From Lyophyllum atratum (Eukaryota > Basidiomycota > Agaricomycetes > Agaricales > Lyophyllaceae), in contig JACGCN010000005.1 of the NCBI GenBank assembly GCA_014905825.1, forward strand, positions 2,170,001 through 2,234,000: a stretch of DNA of 64,000 bases, read 5' to 3'. Both the position numbers and the translations under genes were made by a program. Below, one piece after another: positions 17,152 through 27,974 of the stretch. The stretch's first letter is position 1. Each line of letters begins with the position of its first letter. The notes beneath the pieces are model-generated. The model was not told the DNA's origin and searched no databases. It saw only the letters and a list, made by a program, of their open reading frames with translations.

Positions 17152-20100
17152 CTACAAGCCGATGTGGATATAAGGAACCCAAGAGCTGAAAGAGGTGTTT
17201 CCGTAACGAGATCGAAGATCCTGAACCGCAATATGTAGGGCATGTGCACTTTGCAAGACTTCAGGCTCCTTCCCGTCTTTAAATAAATGTTCATAGACTT
17301 TCTTGGCCACCTGCGGCGCATCGTCATCTTTGATTGACCACATAGTGCCAATTATACTGTTGAAGCCTGCAAATAATAATCCAGCTGCAAGATGGATGGC
17401 TTCATCTGGTTGAATATAGTCTCCAGAGGCTGTTTGACAGGCAGAGAGAAATGCAAAGCTTGCTTGAGGAAGAGGTTTCTTGACAAGATCCAAGAGGCTT
17501 AGCATGCCATCATGGAGAGCCAGTCCGCTCTGTGCCGGATTATTTAGATCTTGGATTCCATGGCAAGATAAATGCACCCAGGTATGATCCTCTAGAGCAT
17601 TTGATACAGTTTCTCTTGTGGCCTCTGTCCCATTGAGAACACTGAGTGGCTGGTCACCAACACAATCAGATATAACTGCAAGTTCCCTGACTGTAGCAGG
17701 AAGTTTGCTCTGCCCTGGAGTATCAGGCTGAATGACGGCCAGCATTTTGAAGGTGGCAAGTCCAGACATCTGCTTATGTTTTTCCAGGGCCATGCAAAGA
17801 GAAGTTAGGTTTGGAATATATGATGAGATTGCATATTTTGCAAGAATCTCTGCAGGGACATTTGATGATGTTGGGTATATGCCTGCTGCGTGTAAAGGCA
17901 AAAATGCCAAGTGCCCAGTCGGACACCAGTAGATGTGTGGTAGCTTTGATGTGTCACTCTATTCCGAGGAAAAGAGAATCAAGTTAGAAAGGGTATCAAA
18001 TTGGTCACAGAGTAGGCTTACCTGGATAGATAGCTGCAGCAGATTTATGATAGGCTTCACAACCCTCAGCCAAAGCTCTTTCAAAATATACCTGAAAGTA
18101 TTGTCTGCTGTTTTCCGGGTTTGGTTTACAGGACCCCCGTGCCTACTGGAGCCGTCACGAAGACCAAGCTGAGATGCAAGGAGGTCTGCTAGTTGACTTT
18201 GCAGCTGTTCAGCATCTTTCTGAGAGAAGTGGTCCAGCGGAAGATGCAGAATTGGAAGCGTAGGTGACTGAATGATAAGTGCATCACACTGTAGTTGACT
18301 TATATTGAGGATGACGATAGGGCCAAAGACTGAAGCTCTTTGCAAGTCTGAAGATTTGGGTCCCCTGGGTGTCGCATTTGCTTCAGGTCTCTCCTGAATT
18401 TGCTTCATGAGCGTGTCCAATTCAGTAGCCAGTTGATGTTGACGGTTGAATTGATCATCAATTGCAAGTGAATTGGGGAGCTTTTGTACAGAGGTATACA
18501 AGAAACTACCCTGTCCACGTTGGTTATCAAGTTCAGCAGATATTTTCTCTATTTTTTGAAGTAGCATTGGATCTACCTCTGCTGATTTGGCAAAAGGCAA
18601 CCGCAGTTGTAAAATATGACTCCAGAGGATAGAACGACCTTGCTCGAACCATTCGATTGCCAGATCAAGTGATTTTGCTTTCTCTGTAGGGTTTCCAAAA
18701 TGAATAGCAGCCGCAGCAGCATCAGAGCCAAGGGTTCTTGCACCAATAAGTCTCTGAAGCTGGGCTTCATGACTTAGTCCATGCCAAGCAAGAAATGGCA
18801 GAATCTCAAATGCTCTTGAATATGCATTCCACACTGAGGGATGAGGCTCTGAGTAGAGGGTTGCGCAGTTAATCCATGCAAGAGTGGATTTGAACTGGGC
18901 TGTATATGATCCCGTCTTATGCTTAGAGGCCTGAATATATGCTTCGATGGCATGTGTCAGAACTTCTTCCTTGTGTTCTAGTTTGAACTTGGCTTCAAAT
19001 ATTTGACCCATGAGGAGATACTGCTTTGCTCTGGCAGGATGGAATTCTGGAGTGGCTTTGAGGGCTGTTTCAAAGCACAACATGGCTTTGTCCAAGTCCG
19101 AGACTTGACTAGTATGTTGGGCTCGCTTCTCCAACACATTTCCCAGTTCAATCAACATCGTCGTTTTATGTTGGTGGCCATCACCTAACATTTTTAGACC
19201 CATTTCATGATACATGATGCAATTATCAAGATGAGCCAGATCCCCATCCATATCATAGAACATGGCATAAGTGCTTCCTAGATTAGACAAATACATAGGC
19301 TTGTATTTGCTTGTATCTGGACTGATATCAACAGCTCTTTGTTGCTGTGCAAGAGCTTTTGCCAAGTGGTCGAGAGTCCCCCCTGCGGAAAAGCGCTTTC
19401 TCAAGGAATTTCCTAGATTATTCAAGAACATTGGCAATCTTGTATGGCCATCAGGTGTGGCATTAACAGCCTTCCAGTGATTTTCTGTAGCTCTGTTCAG
19501 ATCATGAAGCTCTCCGTACTCTTCATAGCGAGTCTGCAGTGTGTTACCCAGATTACTATACAACCCAGCCTTTTCAGGATCAGTTTCTGCAATTGTGTCA
19601 AGTGCACCCTGTTGATAAGCAATAGCGGTATCAAGATCATGAAGAACTCCAGTTTGTTGAAAGCGTGATATTAATGAATTTGCAAGATTCATTGTAATCA
19701 TCACTTCCTTGGAATTGTTGCCTTGCGACAATGTGCTTGCATGTTCTAATGTTTCAATTGCCTTGTCCAGATTTTCAATCTGACTTCCATGATCAAATAG
19801 TCTCTGTAAACAGGTACCAAAATTGCTAAGACGCATAGCTTGTCGAGGGTGACCATTTGGAGTTAGAGTTACTATTGCTTTATAGTTTTGCACAGCATCT
19901 TCTAGAAAAGCAACGCCTCCTAGTACATCGAACTGCGAAAGCAAAGATATTGCAAGGTTGTTGATGTAGCTACTTTTGTCTTCATCATTCAAGGCTAACT
20001 TGATTGCCTCCTGAAGATGTTGAACAGACATGGTGAGCTGAGATATGTCATGAGAGCACACAAATTGGGAGTGGAGTGCACTGCCAAGATAGTTAAGATA

Positions 20101-26100: not shown

Positions 26101-27974
26101 ACAAGAAGACTGTTCTACGCATTGTCTTCGATCCTACGCACGACATCAACTACCAGAACACTCATGATCGTCTCCTTCGTGTCCGGCACTATTCCATTGG
26201 CGGTGACAACTGGGATCGTCGTGGTGGGCTTTCTCATGGCGAGAACCTTGAAGCTCATGAGATCTTCTCCATTGGCCATCTCTTCGCTACTCTTGTCCGT
26301 GTCAACGGCACTGATGTGGGTGTTGGTATTGCTCAGACTACGCTCATTAAGGTGGCTGCCTCATCGATATCCATCCACTCGGCACCTCGTTCAGAGATTA
26401 ACCTTCCTTCATCACCATACGAGGTCTCCGGAGAGCTTCTTGCAGTCAAGCCATTTATGTCCAGTACGGACAATCGACTACGCTGGGCTTGGGATGCGAG
26501 CTATATTGCTCTCGAGCCATATAAAGTGCGTCAGCCATCCGCGGTGGCGGCTCCATCTGTGCGAGAGGTAACTCGGAAGAAAGACTACGTGCTCACAGTT
26601 CCGGGAGCCCTCGTTGTCCCAGTCGGCGATGACAGCCAGCGTCTAGATGTCTGTCACTTGCCAGAGTCATTTGTCATGCAACGGGACATTGACTCAACGT
26701 GGGTATTCGATGACTGCGTTCTTACGCGGCTTCGAACACTGCTTTGGGAGAAGGTCAAGGAGCCGGGTGCGCCTCTTCAAACACGTGTCCCAACGTACGG
26801 CGCTGTACCCGTTGGAGTGTTTCCTTATAGTTCTCTTACCCAGGATGGTCTGTACGCATCGTTGTCCATACTGCTCCTCAAACTGATTGATTACCAGACA
26901 TTTCGCTCAAGACTACACATCTCGCTGGGAAGCTGATGATTGCTGCTGCGCTGGCAGACCAACGTTTACCGTGTGCTCTGTGTAACAAACCGGTTGCAGG
27001 TGCTGACCGACAGAACCATATGGGACGCCATATAGCTTGCTCCATCCTTCATGCAGAAGACAAGCTTGTCGCAGACGCGGGAAAGGTAAGAGATATTGCT
27101 CGTCACTTCACTTGTTCTGACCGTTGCATCCAAGGTCGTGGCAGAATACGCGTGCGGTTTTTGTGGTGGCCCCTCGGACGAAACGACATGCACAATTGGA
27201 ATCGGAATAGGTAATAAGGCGGCATCGAATTGCGCAGCCGCATACACGTTCTCCATTTCCCATGCCGCAAAAGTCAGTGCATCGAAACCTTGTACAAATG
27301 TACCGATGCGCTGTTCTCTCTGCCCACAGACCACGATCCACTGGTCCTACAACATGCCAAAGCACATGGAGGCTCGCCATCCAGGATGGGAGCGACAGGT
27401 GACATCGGAATACCGGGCTCGGATTGGAGTCTCACCTATTGAGCAAGAGGCTTTCAGCCTTATTGCCGTGACCACCAGTACAGACGTAGGTCATCACAAC
27501 AACAAACGACCTGCATCTTCACCTCCTGGGACACCTCGTTCAAAGGCGAGAGAGGAGTCGCAGAAGTGCAAAAGCAGGAGGGTCTCGGGAGGCGGTGCCG
27601 CGGTGAATCCTTGGAAGGATGATGTCTTCACAATTTGATGTAGGCTTAGAAACTATTTATTTCCAAACTCTTGAGGCTATTCTGCATCGATTGGTAGTAT
27701 CCTGTATTGCTACGACGCACAGTACAGTTATCGGGCGAGGCTTTCGCAATAAGCTCGACGAGTTGCGAAAACCATCTCCGATTGATGGCCAGCCCACCTG
27801 CCGAGTGCTTTGTCATCGCGAAAACCGGGGATATCATCGAGCCACGCGAGACGCACATGGCCTCCCTTGTATGCCCGATTCACGGATCGTCCACCTCTTG
27901 CTGGTGAGTGAGAAAGATCTGACCTTGCAAAATTGATCCCCAAAGTCGATTCCTAACATAATAACAGCAGACAT
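17152..27974 (-). CDS. Hsp70/Hsp110-like ATPase - TPR array - CHAT protease fusion
   Basis: Exon 1 (27974-27924) encodes MSAVIMLGIDFGDQFCK, the phosphate-1 loop of the Hsp70 actin-like fold. Intron 1 spans 27923-23037 and contains a transposon. Exon 2 begins at 23036 (VAIANPTTGKRFDEMNVSYL); further exons give FENEQSIKFGIDAH, KAVITVPGWFSKVQQRSM, the phosphate-2 motif FIDIGHTATSLSVL and the adenosine-type motif DKVILNGGSMHLLQ. Wording is closest to the Hsp110/Sse1 branch. From about residue 450 a long array of degenerate TPRs follows (for example MYLNNLGNSLRKRF-like units every 45-50 residues, some 16-18 of them). After one more intron (about 18020-17955) comes a CHAT domain: IYWCPTGHLAFLPLHAAG, catalytic His in WVHLSCHGIQD and Cys in FAFLSACQTASGD, ending SSWVPYIHIGL. 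Stop 17154-17152. The order ATPase, repeats, protease suggests a sensor that releases proteolysis; this is inferred. Total about 1,900 residues. Confidence 0.85.
23061..23066. repeat. target-site duplication, left copy (TGGTGA)
   Basis: TGGTGA directly precedes the left inverted repeat and is repeated directly after the right one. One extra base (C) also matches if the right repeat is shortened by a base, so the duplication is 6-7 bp (8 bp with one mismatch). Confidence 0.7.
23067..23126 (+). repeat. terminal inverted repeat, left
   Basis: Sixty bases that match the reverse complement of 27842-27901 at 58 positions (differences at positions 12 and 51 from the outer end). Weaker similarity continues inward for another 40 bases or so (shared GATGACAAA). 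Confidence 0.88.
23341..27638 (+). CDS. putative transposase with C-terminal zinc fingers
   Basis: Four exons: 23341-24925, 24982-26847, 26898-27085, 27135-27638, all joined in frame by GT...AG introns. The N-terminus is Ser/Thr-rich with a CPGC...C...C...CSSC cysteine cluster; a coiled-coil stretch follows (LKAEREKVNKLKLEKLSLSS). Candidate RNase H-like acidic blocks are GHTLALDEIAGDGRVCYL, GPIWAIASDGDATRRV, TTMDFDWKHIFKRLC and, late, GDDVLETLFGRVRMIGGHSP, the last resembling the LE-FF--R--GG region of P-element/THAP9 transposases. C-terminal fingers are CALCNKPVAGADRQNHMGRH, CGFCGG and CSLCPQTTIHWSYNMPKHME, with a basic end (PRSKAREESQKCKSRRVSGG). About 1,380 residues. The first ATG was chosen as the longest start; no stop or shift was seen, so the element may still be able to move. 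The assignment to a superfamily is tentative. Confidence 0.72.
27842..27901 (-). repeat. terminal inverted repeat, right
   Basis: Inverted partner of 23067-23126, ending CCACCTCTTGC at the outer edge. It lies about 200 bp past the transposase stop. Confidence 0.88.
27902..27907. repeat. target-site duplication, right copy (TGGTGA)
   Basis: Direct repeat of 23061-23066, adjacent to the right inverted repeat and 17 bp from the splice donor of exon 1 of the host gene. Confidence 0.7.

What the first reader, a model, noticed from the sequence alone, without database searches (positions are those of the whole stretch)
17152..27974. Hsp110-like ATPase fused to a TPR array and a CHAT protease
One gene encodes a chaperone-type actin-fold ATPase (phosphate-1, phosphate-2 and adenosine motifs readable), 16 or more degenerate TPRs and a CHAT domain with the His/Cys pair intact. 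Known: TPR-CHAT proteins include Csx29, a protease switched on by a CRISPR effector, and fungal death/immunity proteins often pair an ATPase switch, repeats and an effector. Inference: the Hsp-like head replaces the usual NACHT/NB-ARC switch, making a chaperone-based sensor protease. I know of no described function for this combination.
Basis: partly seen in the sequence, partly recalled or inferred. Interest (0 to 1): 0.88.

Follow-up and report, generated by a model that had tools for sequence, protein, structure and literature searches.

The report
Mushroom caspase-like protease with chaperone head
A mushroom gene joins a piece copied from a heat-shock chaperone gene to a repeat array and a caspase-like protease; related mushrooms carry the same three-part gene, so it looks like a conserved but undescribed protein-cutting sensor.

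Summary
One minus-strand gene (exons 27974-27924, 23036-22963, 22907-22712, 22662-18022, 17958-17152) encodes 1,922 aa: an Hsp110-type nucleotide-binding head, a TPR-like array (period about 45 aa) and a CHAT domain with His1787/Cys1828. Most of the head and all TPRs lie in one exon. The head's three introns match, in column and phase, those of the fungus's own Hsp110 gene, so the head descends from a duplicated Hsp110 gene. Six of 120 listed relatives have HSP70 plus CHAT; trees support one old fusion.

Two corrections. Intron 1 is 4,887 bp because a DNA transposon (23068-27900, 8-bp target duplication) sits in it; the other allele lacks it but has an LTR element in its CHAT exon. So neither allele in this strain is pristine. 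And the head did not 'replace NACHT': by eye, none of the 120 listed relatives has NACHT or NB-ARC in Pfam, and the ATP site is eroded in all six fusion relatives.

Best reading: a TPR-CHAT protease gated by a fast-evolving Hsp110-derived sensor, probably in fungal defence or self-recognition death. Function is untested. New variant of a known kind.

The parts
27924..27974 (-). exon 1: start codon and phosphate-1 motif (GIDFG)
   Evidence: same intron position and phase as own Hsp110 gene; present in the other allele
23037..27923 (-). intron 1, 4887 bp, enlarged by a transposon
   Evidence: the other allele lacks the insert
23068..27900 (.). DNA transposon, 4833 bp, long ORFs on the + strand, terminal inverted repeats; no other close copy found in the genome
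23060..23067 (.). 8-bp target-site duplication, one side (CTGGTGAG)
27901..27908 (.). 8-bp target-site duplication, other side (CTGGTGAG)
22963..23036 (-). exon 2 (head)
22712..22907 (-). exon 3 (head)
18022..22662 (-). exon 4: rest of head, linker, TPR array and pre-CHAT linker in one open frame of 1547 codons
21868..22662 (-). Hsp110-type nucleotide-binding head, the part within exon 4 (residues 108-372)
18994..21666 (-). TPR-like array, residues about 440-1330, period about 45 aa; limits approximate
17959..18021 (-). intron 4, 63 bp
17152..17958 (-). exon 5: CHAT protease domain and stop
17560..17562 (-). catalytic His1787 (CHG)
17437..17439 (-). catalytic Cys1828 (SACQT)

Best explanation
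Shown by sequence: one gene encodes an Hsp110-derived nucleotide-binding head, a long TPR-like solenoid and a CHAT (caspase/separase-fold) cysteine protease with its dyad in place; the head shares its introns with the fungus's own Hsp110 gene, and trees of head and C-terminal half support one fusion event before the sampled Agaricales lineages split. Inferred: the protein is an autoinhibited protease. The head is its input module; a ligand, partner or nucleotide state at the head is passed through the TPR rod and opens the CHAT active site, as RNA binding does to Csx29. The protease then cleaves a substrate, perhaps a gasdermin-like or other death effector, in defence, allorecognition or proteotoxic stress. 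Because the head is the most variable part among relatives and its ATP site is eroded in them, I favour its use as an integrated copy of a cell target (an Hsp110 decoy or partner-binding platform) over a conserved ATPase switch. In this strain the gene may be impaired by transposons.
For: Gene model and shared exon; Pfam. Three of three head introns coincide in column and phase with the own Hsp110 gene, which is Sse1-like (443 bits). Six relatives with HSP70 plus CHAT, order confirmed in the five rescanned. C-terminal tree (quick method): 7 fusion proteins plus P0013 in one 8-row clade, SH-aLRT 99, of 125 rows. Head tree: 7 heads one clade, 100/99, of 17 rows; the own Hsp110 is the window head's nearest row. 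CHAT model matches Csx29, SAVED-CHAT and separase; head model matches Sse1 first. Between alleles dN/dS is 0.32 head, 0.29 TPR, 0.13-0.17 CHAT. Identity window to six: head 24%, TPR 24%, linker 34%, CHAT 53%; among the six 36, 46, 59, 71%. CHAT proteases act on gasdermins and in heterokaryon incompatibility in fungi (passages of PMC12881547, PMC10197012, PMC11138114); Csx29 is opened allosterically (passages of PMC9729208).
Against: No expression, activity, substrate or ligand data. The neighbour ORFs scanned (16, a selection) show Coq4, an ABC transporter and weak matches only, no gasdermin. Both alleles carry insertions, so the gene may be decaying here. The window head finds 5 of the 6 relatives' heads by phmmer but not P0026, whose HSP70 match is by Pfam (43 bits). 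Relatives' N-termini look short or mis-modelled, so part of the apparent erosion may be annotation error. P0013 of Collybia nuda, in the same clade, has no head in its model.
Confidence: 0.45

Rival explanations
1. Nucleotide-gated switch: the head binds and slowly hydrolyses ATP like Hsp110, and the ATP/ADP state turns the CHAT protease on or off, taking the role NACHT/NB-ARC has in NLRs.
For: In the window protein the phosphate-1 Asp, Lys, Glu, phosphate-2 Asp-Gly and adenosine Gly-Gly-Ser are kept; third codon positions are enriched in substitutions in the head.
Against: In 6 of 6 relatives the second adenosine glycine is gone, and the acidic E175-type residue is lost in 2 of 6. [quoted passage not shown] The window head itself lacks the Arg342-type residue (His) and the T204-type residue (Ala).
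Confidence: 0.2
2. Relic in this strain: the protein was functional in the ancestor, but both alleles are now disabled by transposons, so the locus has no present function here.
For: DNA transposon inside intron 1 of the window allele; LTR element with 100% identical 748-bp repeats inside the CHAT exon of the other allele; contig C54 holds the same insert. C111 as assembled also has two one-base indels in head exons.
Against: The window allele keeps an open 1922-codon frame, and an insertion wholly inside an intron can still be spliced. Exon 5 shows dN/dS 0.13-0.17. The two C111 head indels are not seen at those places in C90, the duplicate of that haplotype, and may be assembly errors.
Confidence: 0.3
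3. The head only recruits Hsp70 or helps fold the long protein; it is neither sensor nor switch.
For: It derives from the Hsp70 exchange factor Hsp110.
Against: In the window head the IIB stretch is 52 residues against 64 in own Hsp110, and the Ala-Asn of own Hsp110's LSAN stretch is Leu-Phe here (that this pair contacts Hsp70 in Sse1 is recalled). The chaperone's substrate-binding half is absent.
Confidence: 0.12
4. Two neighbouring genes read as one by mistake.
For: Some public relatives do look like read-through models: P0021 has an unrelated Kelch-type protein in front of an internal start.
Against: Most of the head and the TPRs lie in one exon without a stop; HSP70 plus CHAT recurs in 6 listed relatives and in the second allele.
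Confidence: 0.02

Closest known systems
TPR-CHAT proteases of Basidiomycota (Pfam CHAT PF12770)
   Same: TPR array, linker and C-terminal CHAT with His/Cys; 36% identity over residues 596-1922 to Collybia nuda P0013
   Different: No HSP70 in the precomputed Pfam column of 114 of the 120 listed hits; 690 further hits not listed
HSP70-TPR-CHAT proteins of Cyclocybe aegerita, Agrocybe chaxingu, A. pediades, Psilocybe cyanescens, Galerina marginata and one unnamed (P0020, P0021, P0024, P0027, P0031, P0026)
   Same: Same domain order in the five rescanned; one clade for head and, with the window protein and P0013, for the C-terminal half; CHAT 52-55% identical to the window's
   Different: About 460-550 aa shorter before CHAT, extra N-termini of P0021 and P0031 trimmed; nucleotide site eroded; named hypothetical, unnamed or CHAT proteins
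Csx29 / TPR-CHAT of type III-E CRISPR (Craspase)
   Same: CHAT fold and His/Cys pair; TPR domain in front
   Different: Bacterial, shorter, bound to a CRISPR effector (passages of PMC9729208); no Hsp head described there
Gasdermin-activating TPR-CHAT of Podospora anserina and hetB CHAT protein of Aspergillus fumigatus
   Same: Fungal CHAT proteases tied to cell death or incompatibility (passages)
   Different: No Hsp head described in the passages read; no gasdermin found among the neighbour ORFs scanned here
Hsp110 / Sse1
   Same: Head fold, phosphate-2 motif of Hsp110 type (Asp-Ile-Gly-His), three shared introns
   Different: No substrate-binding half; IIB shortened in the window head; fused to TPR-CHAT

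Membership tests
TPR-CHAT protease | CHAT domain above the Pfam cut-off | tested here: met
   127.9 bits against 24; fold matches Csx29, SAVED-CHAT, separase
TPR-CHAT protease | His/Cys catalytic dyad | tested here: met
   invariant in 18 of 18 aligned; the two printed PDB alignments place them on the CHG and the following Cys of TPR-CHAT structures
TPR-CHAT protease | TPR array upstream | tested here: met
   TPR_10, TPR_8, TPR-S just above cut-off; about 45-aa spacing
TPR-CHAT protease | proteolytic activity | not testable with these tools
   needs purified protein
Hsp110 | Hsp70-type nucleotide-binding domain nearest to Hsp110 | tested here: met
   Sse1 best by sequence and fold; shared introns
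Hsp110 | substrate-binding half (SBD) | tested here: not met
   HSP70 profile matched only to position 350 of 599; TPRs follow
Hsp110 | intact nucleotide site | tested here: inconclusive
   mostly kept in the window protein, eroded in six relatives
NLR / STAND receptor | NACHT or NB-ARC domain | tested here: not met
   none in the Pfam scan of the gene; none seen by eye in the Pfam columns of the 120 listed relatives
Gasdermin-protease gene pair | gasdermin gene within 10 kb | tested here: inconclusive
   16 distinct neighbour ORFs, a selection, gave no gasdermin; I do not know that Pfam models fungal gasdermins

The most novel reading that the evidence does not exclude
A caspase-like executioner guarded by an integrated copy of a host chaperone: a duplicated Hsp110 domain serves as decoy or proteostasis gauge, so that a parasite, mycovirus, incompatible partner or chaperone collapse acting on the Hsp70/Hsp110 system directly switches on a TPR-CHAT protease. 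This would bring the integrated-decoy logic of plant receptors (recalled) to fungi without any NACHT or NB-ARC switch.
Probability: 0.28. Interest if true: 0.85.

Novelty: new variant of a known kind. Interest (0 to 1): 0.62.

Why it matters
CHAT proteases are emerging triggers of fungal cell death, and a 2025 review says future work is needed on what controls the proteases that activate fungal gasdermins (PMC12881547, passages). A conserved fusion to a known chaperone domain gives a concrete input module to test: what binds the head may turn the protease on or off. It would also be a clear case, with shared introns and one origin, of a chaperone gene recruited as the sensor of a caspase-fold protease.

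Tried and rejected
Two-gene misreading: rejected (shared exon, recurrence in relatives). NACHT-like head: rejected by Pfam and PDB. Gasdermin partner next door: not found among the ORFs scanned. Independent fusions in different species: disfavoured by the head tree (100/99) and the 8-row C-terminal clade (99); P0013 inside that clade has no head in its model, either loss or a truncated model, and I had no tool holding its DNA. The tree needs two label changes because of P0013; the AU test does not reject the seven fusion proteins as one clade without it (p=0.166). A third allele: C90 plus C54 looked like one, but nearly the same substitution counts as C111, the same LTR insert and 26 indels in exon 4 make me read it as an error-rich duplicate of the C111 haplotype. 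The first two protein searches, with words from the N-terminal part, found no HSP70+CHAT protein (4 and 3 hits); only the third, on the C-terminal part, did, and only 120 of its 810 hits are listed. Each search scored only the candidates sharing most words. Transposon superfamily: no Pfam match above cut-off and no convincing PDB match, left open. dN/dS of short flank ORFs is noisy (0.07 to 5.9 where defined), so I rest the selection claim on the third-position test. Paper searches around HSP70 or Hsp110 with CHAT domain in fungi; others returned nothing, and no title or abstract start listed by the others describes this fusion. One listed paper holding both words, a coral genome paper (PMC6208414), I did not open. 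The library lacks most subscription journals and did not hold the Podospora gasdermin-protease paper.
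Full report
What is there. On the minus strand, 27974 down to 17152, there is one five-exon gene of 1,922 codons with no internal stop. Exon 4 (22662-18022) is a single open stretch of 1,547 codons that holds about the last 70% of the head, the linker, the whole TPR array and the pre-CHAT linker. Pfam gives HSP70 at 93.2 bits, TPR_10, TPR_8 and TPR-S just above cut-off, and CHAT at 127.9 bits.

The gene model is supported independently. I assembled the same region of the fungus's own Hsp110 gene (L011; 443 bits to yeast Sse1, 295 to the best Hsp70). 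All three introns of the head sit at the same alignment columns (16, 40, 109) and in the same phases (0, 2, 0) as in that gene. This fixes the small 5' exons and shows where the head came from: the front of a duplicated Hsp110 gene. By sequence the head's best solved relative is Sse1 (87 bits against 65 for DnaK). The AlphaFold model of its exon-4 part (mean pLDDT 69.6; residues 11-260 mostly over 75, the tail not usable) matches Sse1 first.

The transposon. Intron 1 is 4,887 bp. Inside it lies an element of 4,833 bp (23068-27900) with terminal inverted repeats (73 nt, 90% complementary) and a perfect 8-bp target-site duplication, CTGGTGAG. The second allele (contig C111) has the short intron without the insert, with the site in a slightly different form. 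A DNA search finds no other close copy of the element in the 64.8-Mb assembly (that search can skip very common words); neither Pfam nor PDB names its proteins.

The two alleles. C111 matches the window on both sides at about 91-96% DNA identity. It lacks the intron transposon but carries about 9.85 kb inside exon 5, within the CHAT domain, flanked by two 748-bp repeats that are 100% identical, i.e. a young LTR element. As assembled, C111 also has a one-base deletion in exon 1 and a one-base insertion in exon 4; C90 lacks the first and shows no insertion at the place of the second, so I suspect assembly errors. Contigs C90 and C54 repeat this haplotype with many small indels and the same LTR insert; I treat them as a duplicate, not a third copy. 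Between window and C111, dN/dS is 0.32 in the head, 0.29 in the TPRs and 0.13-0.17 in the CHAT exon, and substitutions are enriched at third positions in head (34 of 69, p=0.0044), TPR (99 of 203, p=3.9e-6), pre-CHAT (17 of 35, p=0.044) and CHAT (18 of 25, p=8.8e-5); the linker alone is not significant (12 of 25, p=0.09). So head, TPR and CHAT were under protein-level constraint, but in this strain one allele is interrupted and the other depends on splicing of a 4.9-kb intron.

Relatives. Of 120 listed hits (of 810) to residues 1380-1922, 6 carry both HSP70 and CHAT: Cyclocybe aegerita, Agrocybe chaxingu, A. pediades, Psilocybe cyanescens, Galerina marginata and one unnamed. A direct Pfam scan of five of the six confirmed the order HSP70-TPR-CHAT; P0021 was not rescanned. 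The window head finds five of the six by phmmer, not P0026. In a tree of 125 C-terminal regions the six, the window protein and Collybia nuda P0013 form one clade (SH-aLRT 99, quick method). P0013 has no head in its model, which aligns from window residue 596 on, inside the TPR array. In a tree of 17 Hsp heads the seven heads form one clade (100/99), and the own Hsp110 is the window head's nearest row. One fusion event before these lineages split is the simplest account. In the window's own genome, 6 CHAT stretches and 56 HSP70 stretches were listed, both lower bounds; the two families coincide only in this gene and its allelic contigs.

How it probably works. The CHAT model (mean pLDDT 76.8; first 50 residues poor) matches Csx29, the SAVED-CHAT filament protein and separase, and the His and Cys are invariant in 18 of 18 aligned proteins. 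In Csx29 RNA at the linker and TPR cleft opens the CHAT active site (PMC9729208, passages). In fungi a TPR-bearing CHAT protease activates a gasdermin in Podospora (PMC12881547, passages), and a CHAT gene, hetB, underlies heterokaryon incompatibility in Aspergillus fumigatus (PMC11138114, passages). I therefore infer an autoinhibited protease with the Hsp110-derived head as input. Conservation falls from CHAT (53% window to six; 71% among the six) through linker (34; 59) and TPR (24; 46) to head (24; 36): constant output, variable input. The ATP site argues against a conserved ATPase switch: the window head keeps Asp, Lys, Glu, Asp-Gly and Gly-Gly-Ser but not the Thr and Arg positions, and 6 of 6 relatives have lost the second glycine of the adenosine motif. 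The relatives' N-terminal models may be faulty, so their missing phosphate-1 residues are not counted as strong evidence. The Hsp70-contact face also looks altered (the IIB stretch is 52 residues in the window head against 64 in own Hsp110, though 63-64 in the six relatives; the LSAN Ala-Asn is changed in all seven), which speaks against simple exchange-factor work. I rank: derived partner-binding sensor or decoy, then nucleotide switch, then passive recruiter; the relic reading for this strain can hold beside any of them.

What is not shown. No transcript, no activity, no ligand, no substrate. Among 16 neighbour ORFs scanned, a selection, Pfam found Coq4, an ABC transporter and weak matches only; no gasdermin. 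The mushroom species is not identified.

Novelty. The paper searches listed no description of an Hsp70/Hsp110-CHAT fusion; two reviews of fungal cell death and immunity do not contain the word Hsp70, nor does the fungal NLR effector survey. The proteins exist in public databases as hypothetical, unnamed or CHAT proteins. I file it as a new variant of a known kind, the TPR-CHAT proteases.

Noticed in passing
window 23068-27900: DNA transposon, 8-bp target duplication, two long ORFs on the + strand, no Pfam or PDB assignment, no other close copy found in the assembly; superfamily undetermined.
   Followed up: partly
L027 about 4270 to L028 about 4140 (contig C111): Young LTR retrotransposon (two identical 748-bp repeats, one 2394-aa open frame) inside the CHAT exon of the second allele.
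   Followed up: partly
G000 contigs C90, C54, C111, C97: The assembly seems to hold both haplotypes plus error-rich duplicate contigs; several HSP70 matches appear in near-equal contig pairs.
   Followed up: partly
L030/L031 (C13), L033 (C78), L032 (C64): Other CHAT genes of the same genome: one TPR-CHAT present on two contigs (probably alleles) and one more divergent CHAT; their contigs are not among those with HSP70 matches.
   Followed up: partly
window 28492-29470, +: Divergent neighbour gene, dN/dS 0.11-0.19 between alleles in two ORFs, a weak sub-cut-off PLD-motif match; possibly a phosphatidylglycerophosphate synthase (recalled resemblance).
   Followed up: partly
window 12445-13659, + and 30851-31504, -: Coq4 gene and an ABC transporter ATPase flank the locus.
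   Followed up: no
P0007, 1648 aa: A protein of unnamed source joins an Hsp70 domain to several AAA ATPase modules; another Hsp70 fusion worth a look.
   Followed up: no
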